Assembly: GCA_046727435.1 (NCBI GenBank)
Contig: JBKPCR010000047.1
Span: 1 to 7,615 of the forward strand
Reading direction: 5' to 3'
DNA length: 7,615 bases
Source: CAVPRW01 sp046727435 [NCBI: bacterium]
Lineage (GTDB): Bacteria; Tectomicrobia; Entotheonellia; J063
Shown: in pieces, positions 2 through 5,748 of the stretch
How the letters are laid out: each line of letters begins with the position of its first letter
How positions within the stretch are numbered: the first letter of the stretch is position 1
Made by a program: the position numbers and the translations under genes
Notes under the pieces: model-generated
Told to the model about the DNA's origin: nothing
The model's input: the letters and a program-made list of their open reading frames with translations, nothing else
Database searches by the model: none

Positions 2-361
2 TATATCAACTCAAATGCCGCGGATTTTCAGGTTCCCGAGCTGCGCCCCTATTTGGATAAGTACCTCCGCGGCTCCAATGGTTATGACGCAGAGCAGCGC
101 ATCAAGCTCCTGAAGCTCCTGTGGGATGCCATCGGCACTGAATTTGGCGGGCGTCACGAGCTATATGAGCGCAATTATGCCGGCAACCACGAGAACATCC
201 GCATGGAGATGCTATTCACGGCAATGGCTAATGGCTCAGCAGATGCCTGTAAGGGATTGGCCGAGCAGTGCTTGCAGGAGTATGATCTAGACGGCTGGAC
301 CGTCCCCGACCTCATCAACTCGGACGACGTGAATGTCATCAAGAAAAGTGCTGAGCGATGA
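2..361 (+). CDS. 4-hydroxyphenylacetate 3-monooxygenase, oxygenase component (HpaB family), C-terminal part
   Basis: The gene enters from the left edge; 119 residues remain of a family that is usually about 480-520 aa. The frame stays open to the window start, so the TTG at 53 is internal and not a start. The segment [20 protein letters not shown] followed by [13 protein letters not shown] is the characteristic C-terminal helix and FGxRHELYERxYAG block of HpaB/PvcC/HpaH flavin-dependent aromatic hydroxylases. The ending, a helix rich in small residues and then a W-T-V-P-D-L segment, also fits. Family enzymes use FADH2 from a partner reductase to ortho-hydroxylate phenols such as 4-hydroxyphenylacetate in the cytoplasm; other members act on related phenols, so the substrate is not fixed here. 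The last codons (K-S-A-E-R-stop) lie inside a repeat-built hairpin, so the extreme C-terminus may be repeat-derived. It faces the HEPN gene tail to tail. Confidence 0.88.
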
Positions 362-430
362 GTGCTGAGGACTGTGGACCGTGTCTTTGCCCGCTTCTGA
401 CTCAGCACTCAGTCCTCAGCACTCAGCACT
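347..430. terminator. Long repeat-built hairpin between convergent genes, probable bidirectional terminator
   Basis: Two copies of AGTGCTGAG (347-355 and 361-369) face three copies of CTCAGCACT (401-409, 415-423, 422-430). A 16-bp perfect stem forms between 359-374 (TGAGTGCTGAGGACTG) and 410-425 with a 35-nt loop; outside it AGTGC at 347-351 can pair with GCACT at 426-430. It sits exactly between the end of the HpaB gene and the end of the convergent HEPN gene, where a bidirectional terminator would be expected. There is no clean U-tract, so it may be a dispersed repeat that also works as a terminator. The stop codon of HpaB is inside the 5' arm. Confidence 0.55.
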
Positions 431-501
431 GTCTTTGTCTTTGGGAGGCCTGGGCTGATGCCGAGCCGGCACCTGGGGATATTCATCTGCTATGCCCCTG
501 G

Positions 502-788
502 TCAGGAGGCGGGAGAGGCGTGGCGAACCTTCATACCTCGGATCAGATACCGATGAAACTCGGAAGGCATGACACCGGTCTTGACAAAGTGCTCTCCGAA
601 GGCCGCATGCACGGCACTATGCCTTGAAAGGCCAGCCCTTGACCCAACAGAAAGGCGTCCGTGATGTAGAACATTGTGAAGTAAGCGCGGGAGGCTGCAA
701 AACCGTGATAGCCCTGTGTGTCCAGAATCTTTGCCGCGGCCAGGCTGTCATGTGCTTGACGAAGCAAGTCCGCTTGCTCTGGCATCAT
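502..788 (-). pseudogene. HEPN-domain toxin, frameshifted and shortened
   Basis: The first 54 residues from the ATG at 788-786 read as a HEPN-domain protein: a helix starting PEQADLLRQAHDSLAAAKIL, then GYHGFAASRAYFTMFYITDA, typical of PF05168-like HEPN proteins. After GLAF (codon ending at 627) the frame should continue as S-R-H-S-A-V-H-A-A-F-G-E-H-F-V-K-T-G; this lies in the next frame and is reached if one T is added to the TTT at 629-627. The second frame runs to a TGA at 504-502. HEPN toxins are usually RNases with an R-x4-6-H motif; RHSAVH fits and falls right after the shift. The end after HRYLIRG also looks eroded, with scraps of family-like sequence in the other frames. The start overlaps the stop of the upstream nucleotidyltransferase (ATGA at 788-785), so the two are translationally coupled. 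As read the toxin is inactive; a sequencing error could give the same picture. Confidence 0.8.
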
Positions 789-1105
789 ATCGGCACACCT
801 TCGCGGCGAATATTGAGCAAAAGAGGGCTGCATTCGCGCTCGAACTGCTCTACCGAAACGAACACACAACAGACCACTTCGTTATGGTGAAGCGAGACGT
901 CAGCGACGTCCTCGATGGTCCTGCCGATCTCCTCACACGGTGACACCTCGCCCCTGAGCACCACCAGCACATCAATATCCGAGCCTGGTTCAGCATCGCC
1001 GCGAGCCTGCGACCCAAACAGCATCATCTCTACTAACCGAGTGCTATAGAGAACCTCGAACCGCCGCCGCAGTTCAGCGAGAATAGTGGTCAACTTATCG
1101 TTCAT
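785..1105 (-). CDS. MNT-type nucleotidyltransferase, antitoxin partner of HEPN
   Basis: The 106-aa product is a minimal nucleotidyltransferase of the DNA polymerase beta superfamily. The signature GSQARGDAEPGSDIDVLV spans residues 31-48 and gives the GSx10DxD motif: Gly31-Ser32 bind the NTP, and Asp43 and Asp45 bind metal. Length and motif spacing are normal for the family and there is no break. The ATG at 1105 has an AGGA site at 1113-1110, four bases upstream. It is the first gene of a two-gene unit on the minus strand, its TGA overlapping the HEPN start. In studied MNT/HEPN modules (MntA-HepT) the MNT protein inactivates the HEPN RNase by adding AMP to it. That role is inferred here from order and motifs. 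With the HEPN partner frameshifted, this may be an orphan antitoxin. Confidence 0.9.
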   Translation of the reverse strand: MNDKLTTILAELRRRFEVLYSTRLVEMMLFGSQARGDAEPGSDIDVLVVLRGEVSPCEEIGRTIEDVADVSLHHNEVVCCVFVSVEQFERECSPLLLNIRREGVPI

Positions 1106-1227: not shown

Positions 1228-2538
1228 CTATGCGGACCTTTCTTCAAGGAAAGTATACAACAGCTTGCCGATCGCAAAACCGCTCGGAAACAGCAGGAAG
1301 CCCCACCAGAGCGAGAACTCAAACCCGAGCAGAAGCGCGATTGGCAATACTCCCGGCATCAGGAAAAAGCACGTATTGAGGATCAAGCCTTCCTTGTGGA
1401 AAAAGTCGACCAGGAGCGACCACACAAGGAAAAGTAGCAGACGCAGACTCATCCAAAGACCGATCCGCCCAAGGCTTTTGCCCAGGAGCCAACACGTGAG
1501 CAGGAAGGCGATGCCTGCAGTGTACCAGGAAGCGAGTGGCAGGTGGAACCACCCAACGCCGACCCCCATGAGGAGCGCATACAGCAACCAGGTGCCCAGG
1601 CCAGTACCCAACAAGATCCCCGTGCGAACCATCGCCAGCTGGTCCAGCGTTATCAAGCCTGCCTGGAGCATGAGATCGAGGACATAGCTGGCGAGGTCGG
1701 GCTGATGCGTGAGGGTGTCGAGGGGCGCTGAGCCTGGGGCCCAATCCGCATGGACCCGGCAGAATGGGGAGGAAGGTTGTGCCCGGTTTTTACATTGCCG
1801 GCCAGCCCTTGTGGTCGCCTGACATCGGTGAGAGCGATGGCTGCGGAGCAGGTCAGCGAGTGGGATGGGTTGTGCATCCTCCTGAGGCCTGGTGGCTAGC
1901 TCGCCTGCCATGTGAGGTACCGTCTCCCGATGCGATCCACCGTGGCGGCGCCCTGCCCTTGTCCGACGGGTCGATGTCCGGGCCGATCGCCTGTCACGGC
2001 GCCGGGAGGTGGTAGATGGCGGGGCGAGCGTGTTCCACCCCTCCTGCACCCGGTCCAAGACCGGATATTGGCAGGCATCAAAGAGCTGAATGACCTCTGG
2101 GTAGGTATGCGCCCGTAACTCCAAGGTCCTCGCATCGATCTGGTCAGCGATGAATGCGCCAAGAGTGCGATGACTACGTACGGCGGTGATAACTAGAGGA
2201 TTATCACTCCGCAGGAACAGTCGGCCCTCGTCGGCCTCGAGCGTCAGGCGGTCGATCTGCTTGCTCCACCGCTCGATGTCGGCGCGAACGTTGGCTGGGA
2301 TTTCGATTTGGCTATGTGTCTCAAGCGTCTGCAAAATGTCGGCGAGTGAGAGGCCCTGGCGCCTGGCTCGCCAGGTCGAGGCCGCGGTGAGCTGGTAGAG
2401 GCCTTGTGTCTCAGTCGTGCTGGCCGGTTCCGCAAAGGTGGACAAAGTCGCGTCTAAGGCGGCCGTGTCTTCTCCCGGGTGCTTATTCACCGCGAGTGAG
2501 CCATCAGGCTGAACTGTGAGGGAACCCTCAGGTGCCAT
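1228..2538 (-). CDS. Membrane protein with XPB/Ssl2 N-terminal-like domain and DUF5763-like zinc motif
   Basis: The ATG at 2538 is preferred because GGGAG (2550-2546) lies seven bases upstream; an ATG 13 codons earlier has no such site. The product is 436 aa. Residues about 5-165 resemble the Helicase_C_3 (XPB/Ssl2 N-terminal-like) domain: a SLTVQPDGSLAV strand, a YQLTAAS segment, LSLADILQTLETHS, NVRADIERW, then a strand pair and a helix ending in YPVLDR. Residues 178-199 form an Arg-rich, probably disordered linker. Residues 239-263 (CQATTRAG...FCRVH) give C-x9-C-x10-C-x2-H (C239, C249, C260, H263), as in the small DUF5763 zinc-binding motif. Residues about 306-428 are very hydrophobic and hold roughly five membrane segments. 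No helicase motor is present. Function is unknown; a membrane-anchored nucleic-acid or protein binding role is only a guess. It is transcribed away from the DUF499 gene. Confidence 0.8.
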   Translation of the reverse strand: MAPEGSLTVQPDGSLAVNKHPGEDTAALDATLSTFAEPASTTETQGLYQLTAASTWRARRQGLSLADILQTLETHSQIEIPANVRADIERWSKQIDRLTLEADEGRLFLRSDNPLVITAVRSHRTLGAFIADQIDARTLELRAHTYPEVIQLFDACQYPVLDRVQEGWNTLAPPSTTSRRRDRRSARTSTRRTRAGRRHGGSHRETVPHMAGELATRPQEDAQPIPLADLLRSHRSHRCQATTRAGRQCKNRAQPSSPFCRVHADWAPGSAPLDTLTHQPDLASYVLDLMLQAGLITLDQLAMVRTGILLGTGLGTWLLYALLMGVGVGWFHLPLASWYTAGIAFLLTCWLLGKSLGRIGLWMSLRLLLFLVWSLLVDFFHKEGLILNTCFFLMPGVLPIALLLGFEFSLWWGFLLFPSGFAIGKLLYTFLEERSA

Positions 2539-2666
2539 ACTTGGACTCCCATGGGGCATGCAACGAGCGCCCTGCACTCTTCTTGCCTATAGTAATTCCA
2601 ACAACACGCATCATATCACACCTGTCACGTCGCGAGTTGTCCCCCCATCCTCCCTCTCGTGGTACG

Positions 2667-2760
2667 TTGACCATCCGCTAGTGCCATATAGTTATATTTT
2701 TATATCAATATTGATCTTTATTTGATAGGATAGCGCGGTCGTAATGGTCACCCCATGACC
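2667..2760 (+). promoter_or_regulatory. AT-rich promoter/operator region ahead of the DUF499 gene
   Basis: The 246-bp gap between the two divergent genes turns sharply AT-rich from about 2684 to 2727. A TTGACC at 2667-2672 could be a -35 box; possible -10 boxes (TATAGT at 2687 or TTATAT at 2692) give poor spacing of 14 or 19, so the exact promoter is unclear. Nearer the gene, GGTCA (2746-2750) and TGACC (2756-2760) form a 5-bp inverted repeat with a 5-base spacer, nested inside CGGTC (2736-2740) / GACCG (2757-2761). Such a site just upstream of the ribosome site could bind a regulator. No promoter for the minus-strand gene could be fixed. Confidence 0.35.
2704..2715. promoter_or_regulatory. 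12-bp perfect palindrome ATCAATATTGAT
   Basis: ATCAATATTGAT is perfectly self-complementary and lies in the AT-rich part of the divergent intergenic region, about 70 bases before the DUF499 start. The size and place fit a binding site for a dimeric regulator, but in AT-rich DNA such palindromes also arise by chance. Confidence 0.3.
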
Positions 2761-2784
2761 GGCTTGACCCAGAGGAACCGCGCG

Positions 2785-3789
2785 ATGCTACCTATTCGGC
2801 ATACCTGCCAACCCCGCCAGGATATCTTGCAAGGCTTCTTCAACCCAGAGATCTTCACCGCCAGCTTGAGCCAGGTGGTGGATCACTATCGTGGGAAACC
2901 GGCCGTCACGCATGCTCTCTACACCGACGCCGAGCAGTTCTTTCGCGACGCGACGTATGCCACGGAGGGCCTGCGCATGGTCCTCACCGATGTCTTCAGC
3001 CGTGCTGCCGGCGAGCATAGTGTCCCAGCCCTGTACCGCCTGGAGACGGCATTCGGTGGGGGCAAGACACATACCCTGATCGCCCTGACCCATATGGGCT
3101 TCTGCGGCCGCGAGCTGGCGGCGGTGACGCAGGGCATCATCGATCCGCAGCTGCGCCATGCACCGGGTGAGGTCACGGTGGTCGGCATCGCCGGCGATGA
3201 GATCCCGGTCCACAAGCCGCAGGGAAGCGACCTGGCCCCCTATACCATCTGGGGCGAGCTGGCCCATCAGATTGGCGGCGAGTCCCTCTACCGTCAGGTG
3301 AAAGCCTCTGCGACATCGCCAGCGGCGCCAGATCGACGATTCTTCGAGCACATCCTGGAGGGGCGCAAAGTCCTCATCATGCTGGATGAATTGGCCCAGT
3401 ATGCCGCTCGCCTGGAGGCGGCGCGCCCGCATGGCAGCGAGCAACTGGCGGCCTTCCTGTTAGCCTTACATGGATACGCCCGCACCCACGCTGGGATTGC
3501 CGTCGTGCTTACACTCGCCAGCCAGTCCGATGCCTTTGCCCGCCAAACCGGTCGCCTGGTCGAGCTCATCTCCACGGTGCGGGGCGAGGACGTGGCCGAG
3601 GACACGGCCCTCGGCATGGCGGAGCAAGCCGAGCGTGGTATCCGCAGCGTCGTGGCCCGCGACGCGGTGACCGTGGTGCCGGTGCAGGCCGCAGAGATCT
3701 CGCGGGTGCTGGCCCGGCGATTGTTCGATCGCATCGATCAGCAGGCCGCCCGCGAGACAGCAAACGCCTATATGGATATGTACAGCTAG
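2785..3789 (+). CDS. DUF499-like ATPase, truncated after the N-terminal ATP-binding part
   Basis: The ATG at 2785 is chosen because GAGGA (2772-2776) lies eight bases upstream; the ATG at 2755 has no ribosome site. The 334-aa product opens with RQDILQGFFNPEIFTASLSQV, typical of DUF499 (large AAA/P-loop ATPases). Walker A is FGGGKTH with Lys94; Walker B is VLIMLDEL with Asp201-Glu202. A later segment, VVLTLASQSDAFAR, fits a sensor strand. DUF499 proteins are usually about 900-1,100 aa, so some 600 residues are missing: the frame ends in TAG just after LARRLFDRIDQQAARETANAY, in the middle of what should be a continuing domain, and the DNA beyond changes to AT-rich repeats. DUF499 ATPases are often found in phage-defence operons with DUF1156 methyltransferases; no such partner is present. 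The stump keeps both nucleotide-binding motifs and could fold, but the full activity is surely lost. Confidence 0.82.
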   Translation: MLPIRHTCQPRQDILQGFFNPEIFTASLSQVVDHYRGKPAVTHALYTDAEQFFRDATYATEGLRMVLTDVFSRAAGEHSVPALYRLETAFGGGKTHTLIALTHMGFCGRELAAVTQGIIDPQLRHAPGEVTVVGIAGDEIPVHKPQGSDLAPYTIWGELAHQIGGESLYRQVKASATSPAAPDRRFFEHILEGRKVLIMLDELAQYAARLEAARPHGSEQLAAFLLALHGYARTHAGIAVVLTLASQSDAFARQTGRLVELISTVRGEDVAEDTALGMAEQAERGIRSVVARDAVTVVPVQAAEISRVLARRLFDRIDQQAARETANAYMDMYS

Positions 3790-3825
3790 CTTAGGGACTA
3801 GCCGGATGGAGTTGGCCTAGAAAAA

Positions 3826-3945
3826 AGCATCTGGTACTAGATGCTGAAGGCTGGAGGCAAAACATCCATTGATATATGCTTTTGTAGGATCTGGCTATAG
3901 ATGCTTCTGTCCAATAATAGACGCAAGCATCTAATGCTAGATGCA
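3826..3945. repeat. Array of 20-bp inverted repeats AGCATCT-N6-AGATGCT (operator-like)
   Basis: Three strong copies are visible: 3826-3845 (AGCATCT GGTACT AGATGCT, 7-bp perfect arms), 3886-3905 (AGGATCT GGCTAT AGATGCT, one mismatch) and 3926-3945 (AGCATCT AATGCT AGATGCA, one mismatch). A weaker copy lies at 3861-3880 (AACATCC ATTGAT ATATGCT, 11 of 14 arm bases). The spacer is always six bases and the base before the right arm is T in all four. Centres of the strong copies are 60 and 40 bp apart. The array fills the gap between the DUF499 stump and the AIPR gene, where operators would be expected. The arms contain GCATC/GATGC, so a methylation or restriction target cluster is another reading. 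Confidence 0.65.
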
Positions 3946-3954
3946 ATGATTCGA

Positions 3955-3990
3955 CGTCTAATTAATAGTTTGCATGAAAGGAATTAGACG
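3955..3990 (+). promoter_or_regulatory. Leader hairpin enclosing the AIPR ribosome binding site
   Basis: CGTCTAATT (3955-3963) is perfectly complementary to AATTAGACG (3982-3990), a 9-bp stem with an 18-nt loop. The 3' arm ends on the base just before the ATG at 3991, and the likely Shine-Dalgarno AAAGGA (3977-3982) sits at the loop-stem border. Folded RNA would place the start codon against a stem and limit ribosome access. This looks like translational control of a toxic product; the pairing is seen directly, the effect is inferred. Confidence 0.5.
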
Positions 3991-5748
3991 ATGTACGACC
4001 GAATTGTGGAGGATATTGGCCAAGAATACTACCAACAGAACTTCCCTAACGATGGGCAGCGTTTCGTCGCATGGTACCTGAGAAACGTTCATCTGCGTGA
4101 TCAGATCCAGACCAGGGACGACATCACCGATGGTCCCGACGATAAGCAGATCGATGCCGTCTTCGTTGATGACGACAAGTCCACTGTATTCATTCTCCAA
4201 GGCAAGTTTCTGGCGATGGACTCGGTCGATGCCGAACCGCTACGCGAGGTGCTATCGGCATGGATTCAGATGAGAGACCTCGTCAGACTATAAGAGGTCG
4301 GGAACCAGAAGCTCAAACGCAAGCTTGCTGAGATCGCCCGTGCTCTGGAAGACGAGTACGAGGTAAGCTTCGAGTTGCTCACAACCGGTGTGCTAACCCA
4401 CGGAGCCAAGCAGGACCTTGCGACCTTCCAGGAGCAACTGGCAGAGATATCCGCAAGAGATGACTTTCCTGCCACTATCCGACTGATTGACGAAGACGAG
4501 ATTCGTCGCAGGTATGACATGGCCCTTGAGCGGGAGAACCCGTCCCTCTCGCATGTGCTGGACCTAAGCAAGTGCAGCGTCTTGCCCATGAAGGTCGCCG
4601 GGACGCAGGTGGTTGTTGCAGTGGTTCCGCTTTCCGAGTGCATCAGGTTTCCGGGCATCAAAGATGGCACTCTCTTCCAGAAGAATGTGCGCCAGAGCTT
4701 GGGACTCAGCAACGCTGTCAACAAAGGTATCCGTAACACCATCTACAGCGACAGACATCGTGATTTTTTCTTCTTTCACAACGGCATAACAGCGATCTGC
4801 AATCGTCTCGAAATGAAAGATTCCCGTCTTCATCTGCACGGATTGAGCGTCGTGAACGGTTGCCAATCGCTCAATACCATCCTCAGCTGCAGCGAGCGTG
4901 CCAAGACATTGGACGACACCAGTGTCTGGTTTCGATTCTATGAGATTCCACAGCGAGACAGAGCCGACAAGATAAGCATCAACACAAACTCTCAAAGTGC
5001 GGTGAAACCGCGGGACCTACGCAGTAACGACAAACGGGTGCTGAACCTGAGGCGAGCATTTAACCAGAGATACCCGCGGGGCTACTTCATCACACAGCGA
5101 GGCGAGCAGGCACCTGCCGACAAGGACAAGGCACAGGTTGTTGACCTTGCCGAGCTGGGTAAGTACCTGATCACATGGCACTCCCAGCGGCCAAACGTCG
5201 CGTATAGCGAAACTATGATATTTGACAAGTACTTCGAGCAGCTTTTCAGGCGAGAGTATAGGCCGGAGAACATCAACGCGCTGAATCAATGGATGCAGGC
5301 CGTTATGCGAACATGGGGGAAAGAGAATCCGCTCGGTCTTAATGAGAGTCTTTTGGTTATGCGCGCCTATGCGCCATACCACCATCTTTATGCCGTCTCT
5401 ATGTGCTTTGCGATTGCCAACAATCAGCCTGATCGCGTGCCGAGTCCGGAGGAATGCCTCGCGCGGTCGAAGAGCGCCGGAATGGTTGACGACATCGTCA
5501 AGATAGCTGGCGCCAGCCTGAACATGGCTCTGGAGGCTGCGGCGAACGAGCCCCAGCCTGCGAACAGGGTATTCAGTCCGCAGAACTGGATTAAAACAAA
5601 GACATGCCTTGCGGGGATCAACTTCGCCATTCGCAATTACTTCAACATGCTACCGCTGATGCCCGGCGGGAATGATATGAAGGCGCGACTGGATGGTGCC
5701 CTGGCACTTGATGTAGAAGCCTTCGAGTACAGGTGGGCAGCGGATTGA
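3991..5748 (+). pseudogene. AIPR-family (abortive phage infection) protein interrupted by one in-frame TAA
   Basis: One reading frame of 585 codons carries a single stop, TAA at 4291-4293 (codon 101), between ...MRDLVRL and EVGNQKLKRKL.... Sequence on both sides fits one protein, so a CAA-to-TAA change is likely. The start has AAAGGA eight bases upstream. The N-terminal 100 residues resemble a PD-(D/E)xK nuclease core: Asp55 (KQIDAVFVD) then Gln70-x-Lys72 (FILQGKF). The AIPR domain (PF10592) follows: FFFHNGITAIC around residues 260-270, VVNGCQS at 287-293, and NTNSQSAVKPRDLRS at 331-345. AIPR proteins are linked to abortive infection, where an infected cell dies or stops growing. If read as it stands, a 100-aa nuclease-like stub forms; restarts at TTG 4375 or ATG 4519 would lack that part. 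It follows the inverted-repeat array and leader hairpin. A sequencing error at one base would restore the gene. Confidence 0.85.

What the first reader, a model, noticed from the sequence alone, without database searches (positions are those of the whole stretch)
3826..3945. Array of 20-bp inverted repeats with regular spacing ahead of an abortive-infection gene
Three near-perfect AGCATCT-N6-AGATGCT units, plus one weak unit, fill the leader of the AIPR gene. The six-base spacer is constant and the strong copies are centred 60 and 40 bp apart, close to whole helical turns, as expected for cooperative binding of a dimeric repressor. No regulator gene is adjacent, so a trans-acting regulator or self-binding by the AIPR protein would be implied. 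The arms also hold GCATC/GATGC, which could be a methylation-sensing cluster.
Basis: partly seen in the sequence, partly recalled or inferred. Interest (0 to 1): 0.62.

Follow-up and report, generated by a model that had tools for sequence, protein, structure and literature searches.

The report
Palindrome array before broken defence gene
A cluster of three matching DNA palindromes, probably docking sites for a gene-switch protein, sits in front of an anti-phage gene that is itself broken here, and the relatives examined lack that cluster, so it looks like a local add-on rather than part of the gene family.

Summary
The palindromes are real: AGCATCT-N6-AGATGCT at 3826 (0 mismatches), 3886 (1), 3926 (1), plus a weak unit at 3861 (3). 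The window has six matches at <=3 mismatches; 0 of 200 shuffles reach six. They fill an AT-richer gap between a truncated DUF499 gene and an AIPR gene. Corrections: the AIPR gene has an in-frame stop at 4291-4293, sense in 34 of 34 relatives printed. Spacings of 60 and 40 bp are 5.7 and 3.8 turns. The motif is no AIPR-family trait: 0 of 75 relatives have a unit (<=1 mismatch in 12 arm bases) within 300 bp upstream, five having shorter leaders. Best reading: operators for a trans-acting dimeric regulator, gained locally, now before a decaying gene (0.5). One relative, L070, shows like anatomy with another motif: a divergent BlaI-type gene and three GACTAT-N4-ATAGTC palindromes. AIPR self-binding and methylation sensing are not supported; RNA hairpins or a dispersed repeat remain open. 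The host genome is not held, so the decisive count could not be made.

The parts
3826..3845 (.). palindrome unit 1, perfect AGCATCT-N6-AGATGCT
   Evidence: 0 mismatches; also scores as a terminator-like site on the minus strand
3861..3880 (.). weak unit, 3 mismatches
   Evidence: a 3-mismatch match is near chance level on its own (0.47 expected at <=3 mismatches in the window)
3886..3905 (.). palindrome unit 2, 1 mismatch (left arm)
3926..3945 (.). palindrome unit 3, 1 mismatch (last base of right arm)
3955..3990 (+). perfect 9-bp inverted repeat (3955-3963 / 3982-3990) with Shine-Dalgarno-like AAAGG in its loop, abutting ATG 3991
   Evidence: 7 of 2000 shuffles as good; not seen in the leaders of L001-L003
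3991..4293 (+). first part of the AIPR gene, up to an in-frame TAA
   Evidence: 34 of 34 relatives printed have a sense codon there
4294..5748 (+). rest of the AIPR gene, same frame
   Evidence: Pfam AIPR E 2.3e-35, PADLOC AbiU E 3.1e-35; 79 relatives
2755..3789 (+). truncated DUF499 ATPase gene (344 aa against a profile of 1024)

Best explanation
The three strong palindromes (perhaps four units) are operators for a dimeric DNA-binding regulator encoded elsewhere in the host genome. It would bind each 20-bp site through the two 7-bp arms and hold down transcription of the AIPR anti-phage gene until some signal releases it. The array was gained locally in this lineage, not carried by the AIPR family, and the gene it served has since acquired a stop codon, so the array is probably a relic or close to one. 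Shown: the sites, their place, their absence in the relatives examined, the interrupted gene. Inferred: that a protein binds them, that it represses, and that it is encoded in trans.
For: Clustered palindromes far above chance, in this window only in the leader apart from two weak matches in coding sequence. The two imperfect strong units each differ in one arm only, which breaks hairpin pairing without compensation but leaves the other half-site intact. L070, an AIPR relative with 50% identity, has a divergent BlaI-type gene (PF03965, E 2e-24) and three GACTAT-N4-ATAGTC palindromes 31 bp apart between it and AIPR, one of them with 2 mismatches; 0 of 200 shuffles reach three. L020 and L076 carry an XRE-type HTH gene 5 bp upstream of AIPR. 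Literature: CapW binds imperfect palindromes of 19-24 bp overlapping the -10 site of CBASS promoters (PMC9122588, passages seen); BrxR binds 11-bp inverted repeats with a 5-bp spacer (PMC9122601, passages seen).
Against: No regulator gene found in the window. No sigma-70-like promoter in 3700-4100 (0 found, 0.5 expected). Spacing is not in whole turns at 10.5 bp. Unit absent from the 75 relatives at <=1 mismatch within 300 bp. Adjacent regulators are uncommon: 5 of 69 upstream neighbours match a regulator or DNA-binding antitoxin family at E <= 0.001 among the families shown (2 XRE, 1 BlaI-type, 1 RelB, 1 TacA-type, 8 of 81 family rows not shown), 6 with a weak ribbon-helix-helix match in L058. 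The L070 sites lie nearer the BlaI-type gene's start (39 bp) than AIPR's (150 bp), so they may mainly regulate the regulator.
Confidence: 0.5

Rival explanations
1. The leader works as RNA: unit 1 forms a hairpin, units 2 and 3 pair with each other, and a last hairpin encloses the ribosome-binding site, damping translation of AIPR.
For: RNA fold of 3815-3990: -54.3 kcal/mol, z -4.07, 0 of 200 shuffles as stable; 23-nt arms at 3889-3911/3920-3942, 78% complementary; 9-bp repeat round the ribosome-binding site, 7 of 2000 shuffles; unit 1 scores as terminator-like on the minus strand (1 found, 0.2 expected).
Against: Any array of like palindromes folds well, so the z-score is not independent; arm changes are not compensated; no Rfam family at the gathering score; no like structure in the leaders of L001-L003, though L002 has an unrelated 15-bp hairpin there. 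No transcript start is known.
Confidence: 0.17
2. The units are copies of a short dispersed palindromic repeat (REP-like) of the host that landed in this gap beside broken genes.
For: The surroundings are a scrapyard (truncated DUF499, split AIPR, IS701-like remnant), and the motif is not tied to AIPR. Exact units are commoner than the reversed control pattern in the genomes searched (17 against 1 in 12 genomes; 9 against 2 in 8 genomes).
Against: No other intergenic copy in 7.6 kb; the 17 units in 12 genomes lie apart from one another; 0 of 400 genomes of the phylum has two units 5-35 bp apart by a pattern that units 2 and 3 of the window fit; a shared directional flank was tested and is not significant (p 0.20). 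The true host genome was not available.
Confidence: 0.17
3. The AIPR protein binds the array itself (autoregulation), as DndB does at its own promoter.
For: DndB's N-terminal domain is placed in the AbiU1/AIPR family (PMC3506569, passages seen), and DndB binds two TACG-N10-CGTA palindromes in its own promoter in Salmonella (PMC4507180, passages seen).
Against: L001, L002 and L003 encode AIPR proteins 76-79% identical to the window's, and L002 and L003 are 91% and 86% identical to L001, yet none has the unit and no palindrome is shared among the three. No DndB match by Pfam at E<=1. No solved relative at E<=0.1.
Confidence: 0.06
4. GCATC/GATGC cluster acting as a methylation sensor.
For: Five such sites within 120 bp, 41 in the whole window.
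Against: They are a by-product of the arms; no methylase among the 13 window ORFs scanned.
Confidence: 0.03
5. Chance or decayed noncoding sequence with no function.
For: Genes on both sides are broken.
Against: 0 of 200 window shuffles reach six matches, and no unit with <=1 mismatch in 2000 leader shuffles.
Confidence: 0.07

Closest known systems
Operators of defence-island WYL regulators (BrxR, CapW)
   Same: Palindrome or inverted repeat in the promoter region of an anti-phage gene, bound by a homodimer
   Different: CapW sites are 19-24 bp and overlap the -10 site; BrxR sites are 11-bp repeats with a 5-bp spacer, two sets on pEFER (passages); here three or four 20-bp units and no regulator gene in view
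BlaI-type gene with three palindromes before an AIPR gene in L070
   Same: Three like palindromes in the leader of an AIPR relative
   Different: Different motif (GACTAT-N4-ATAGTC), regular 31-bp steps, regulator gene adjacent, AIPR frame without a stop over the 582 aa scanned
DndB at the dndBCDE promoter
   Same: Two palindromes before a gene whose N-terminal domain is reported as AIPR-like
   Different: Motif TACG-N10-CGTA; self-binding shown there, not supported here

Membership tests
Operator array of a dimeric repressor | Several like palindromes with constant spacer near one gene start, above chance | tested here: met
Operator array of a dimeric repressor | Whole-turn spacing for cooperative binding (usual, not required) | tested here: not met
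   5.71 and 3.81 turns at 10.5 bp
Operator array of a dimeric repressor | Overlap with a recognisable promoter | tested here: inconclusive
   0 sigma-70-like sites in 3700-4100; host promoter type unknown
Operator array of a dimeric repressor | A cognate regulator binds it | not testable with these tools
   needs a binding assay and the host genome
AIPR-family regulatory element | Present upstream of close AIPR homologues | tested here: not met
   0 of 75 at <=1 mismatch within 300 bp; 1 of 75 (L056) at 2 mismatches, single and overlapping the start codon; five of the 75 have under 300 bp of leader
BrxR/CapW-type WYL control | WYL regulator gene adjacent | tested here: not met
   no WYL or HTH hit among the 13 of 49 window ORFs scanned; a gene beyond the window cannot be excluded
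Dispersed REP-like repeat | Many intergenic copies in the host genome | not testable with these tools
   host genome not held; no intergenic copy elsewhere in the window
Cis-acting RNA | Structure kept by compensatory changes in relatives | tested here: inconclusive
   no homologous leader found to test; arm changes between units are uncompensated; fold z -4.07

The most novel reading that the evidence does not exclude
AIPR genes move between distant bacteria without their switch, and each host fits its own: here a host-wide regulator acts through a three- or four-site operator plus a hairpin over the ribosome-binding site, while relatives use a BlaI-type repressor with its own three palindromes (L070) or an XRE-type partner (L020, L076). 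The AIPR family would then be a toxin-like defence gene with exchangeable, lineage-specific control.
Probability: 0.15. Interest if true: 0.45.

Novelty: new member of a known kind. Interest (0 to 1): 0.25.

Why it matters
If the operator reading holds, it shows an abortive-infection gene kept under control by a regulator outside its own locus, and how such genes are re-wired after horizontal transfer. The palindromes alone, before a broken gene, are of modest interest; the comparison with L070 and L020/L076 gives a testable idea about how AIPR genes are regulated.

Tried and rejected
Directional repeat: I first saw a shared flank beyond the palindromes; a permutation test gave p 0.20, so I dropped it.

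Array elsewhere: the strict pattern in viral contigs gave 0; a looser one gave 13 stretches, of which 8 lie in a stop-free frame of 700 nt or more; L106 has three tandem units at 21-bp steps (0, 1 and 2 mismatches) inside short overlapping frames, so coding or not is unclear, and L107 has two. I take both for unrelated tandem repeats, which is a judgement. In the phylum of the genome behind L008 (record title: Chloroflexota) 0 of 400 genomes matched the two-unit pattern. The 201-bp leader by blastn gave weak matches only (E 0.2-0.6) over 39 query bases: 4 Listeria phage records and 1 Listeria record in the plasmid collection.

Motif in print: searching both arms in full text gave 645 papers; the 15 listed are by title on other subjects and were not read.

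Host: the HpaB fragment is up to 74% identical in DNA to members of one order; the XPB-like ORF found only distant matches (45 of 158 genomes of the class; the six best 29-34% identical). No close genome was found, so Chloroflexota is tentative.

AIPR-like genes in plasmids (107 records) and phages (10 records) are all under 60% identical and none covers 80% of the query; their leaders were not examined.

Corrections to my notebook: entry 1 says none of 74 homologues has a unit at <=2 mismatches; the right count is 1 of 75 (L056). Five of the 75 (L011, L026, L029, L044, L062) have less than 300 bp of leader, L029 none. L052, L077, L078 and L079 were left out as partial matches. AIPR starts were placed 384 bp before the matched stretch, not mapped one by one. 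In one search the window's own line was printed out of frame by my slip; the window reading comes. The array test counted two units in L070; one search finds three. Upstream neighbours: one search lists 69; I first scanned 54 of them and on rechecking all 69. Downstream neighbours were listed but not scanned.

Full report
What is there. The unit AGCATCT-N6-AGATGCT occurs without mismatch at 3826-3845, with one mismatch at 3886-3905 and 3926-3945, and with three at 3861-3880. Two further matches (194 with two mismatches, 5055 with three) lie in the HpaB and AIPR frames. The window has six matches at three mismatches or fewer where 0.47 are expected; 0 of 200 shuffles reach six. In 2000 shuffles of the leader no unit with at most one mismatch appeared; the leader has three. 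The palindromes are sound. Centres of the strong units are 60 and 40 bp apart, which at 10.5 bp per turn is 5.71 and 3.81 turns, so the sites do not share a helix face exactly.

Surroundings. The array fills the gap between a DUF499 gene cut to 344 aa (profile length 1024) and an AIPR gene. GC falls from 0.667 (3401-3800) to 0.455 (3801-4200). The AIPR frame opens at 3991, meets TAA at 4291-4293 and goes on in the same frame to 5748. In 34 of 34 relatives printed that codon is a sense codon. The part from 4375 on departs from 4 of 119 columns that are at least 97% conserved in the others; of 70 relatives treated the same way, 64 depart from 0-2, three (L025, L058, L066) from 3, and L053, L057 and L070 from 4, 5 and 6. 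Yet 330 of 503 nucleotide differences from L001 are at third codon positions. So the gene evolved under constraint and was broken lately, unless the stop is an assembly error. Nearby are a nucleotidyltransferase (PADLOC PDC-S09, E 1.2e-34; NCBIfam MntA below its cut-off), an XPB-like helicase fragment and an IS701-like transposase remnant below that family's cut-off. No regulator gene was found in 13 of 49 ORFs scanned.

Relatives. One scan of genome contigs with six peptide patterns gave 79 AIPR relatives, 49-79% identical, from Thiocapsa, Desulfocapsa, Acidobacteria, Bacteroidota, Chloroflexota, archaea and others: a widely moved gene. Of 75 with a usable match, none has a unit with at most one mismatch (12 arm bases counted) within 300 bp upstream; one (L056) has a two-mismatch match overlapping the start codon; five of the 75 have less than 300 bp there. 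Among the 70 leaders of full length, 16 have some perfect inverted repeat with arms of 7 or more and a 3-8 base gap, none of them the window's; 68 have at most one palindrome of any one kind and two have two (L023, AT-rich; L070). The array is therefore not a family trait. Exact single units occur 17 times in 12 genomes of the Chloroflexota sample (reversed control once) and nine times in eight AIPR-bearing genomes (control twice), so the motif is commoner than its control, but no array was seen; the two-unit pattern gave 0 of 400 genomes.

A parallel. L070 has a divergent BlaI-type gene (PF03965, E 2e-24) and, between it and AIPR, three GACTAT-N4-ATAGTC units at 4390 (two mismatches), 4421 and 4452. 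They lie 39 bp from the BlaI-type gene's start and 150 bp from AIPR's. L020 and L076 have the same XRE-type HTH protein encoded 5 bp before AIPR. L058 has a weak ribbon-helix-helix match (E 0.0052, below the family's cut-off). A full scan of 69 upstream neighbours shows five with a regulator or DNA-binding antitoxin family at E <= 0.001: the two XRE, the BlaI-type, one RelB and one TacA-type; 8 of 81 family rows were not shown. The other families shown are of many kinds (integrases, restriction, helicase, metabolic). So AIPR genes sometimes sit beside a local regulator, with different solutions in different lineages, but this is the minority case.

Mechanism. I favour operators for a dimeric regulator encoded in trans (0.5). 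The two imperfect strong units differ in one arm only, which suits half-site recognition and not a conserved hairpin. The RNA reading is next: the leader folds well (z -4.07), units 2 and 3 can pair with each other, and a 9-bp repeat brackets the ribosome-binding site (7 of 2000 shuffles as good, found after the fact). But palindromes always fold, and no relative is close enough in the leader to test covariation. Unit 1 also scores as a terminator on the minus strand (1 found, 0.2 expected). AIPR self-binding has a precedent in DndB (PMC3506569 and PMC4507180, passages seen; in Streptomyces lividans an inverted repeat near dndB acts positively, PMC6186775, passages seen) but predicts conserved sites in L001-L003, which are absent.

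Novelty. A putative operator array before a defence gene is a known kind of thing; BrxR and CapW sites are the nearest studied cases that I saw. Full-text searches for AIPR with operator or with phage defence showed no title or abstract start on AIPR regulation among the rows listed (15 of 255; 8 of 8). The arms appear in 645 papers, of which the 15 listed are by title on other subjects.

Noticed in passing
window 4291-4293: In-frame stop splits the AIPR gene; 34 of 34 relatives printed are open there.
   Followed up: yes
L070 3989-4467: BlaI-type repressor gene divergent from AIPR with three GACTAT-N4-ATAGTC palindromes at 31-bp steps between them.
   Followed up: partly
L020 674-967 and L076 4316-4609: XRE-type HTH gene ending 5 bp before an AIPR gene, a likely regulator or antitoxin partner.
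   Followed up: partly
window 3955-3990: Perfect 9-bp inverted repeat round the ribosome-binding site, abutting the start codon.
   Followed up: partly
window 3826-3845 (-): Unit 1 followed by a T run scores as terminator-like on the minus strand.
   Followed up: no
L106 9266-9327: Three tandem GCATCT-N6-AGATGC-like units at 21-bp steps in a viral contig, within short overlapping frames.
   Followed up: partly
window 543-1105 (-): Nucleotidyltransferase (PADLOC PDC-S09, E 1.2e-34) with a 108-aa neighbour that has no Pfam match, perhaps a HEPN-type partner (recalled, not tested).
   Followed up: no
window 1228-2577 (-): N-terminal piece of an XPB-like helicase joined to a tail without a Pfam match.
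   Followed up: no
window 345-433: Short repeats that match other genomes of the Chloroflexota sample at up to 97% over about 30 bp.
   Followed up: no
L002 4551-4587: Unrelated perfect 15-bp hairpin just upstream of the AIPR gene.
   Followed up: no
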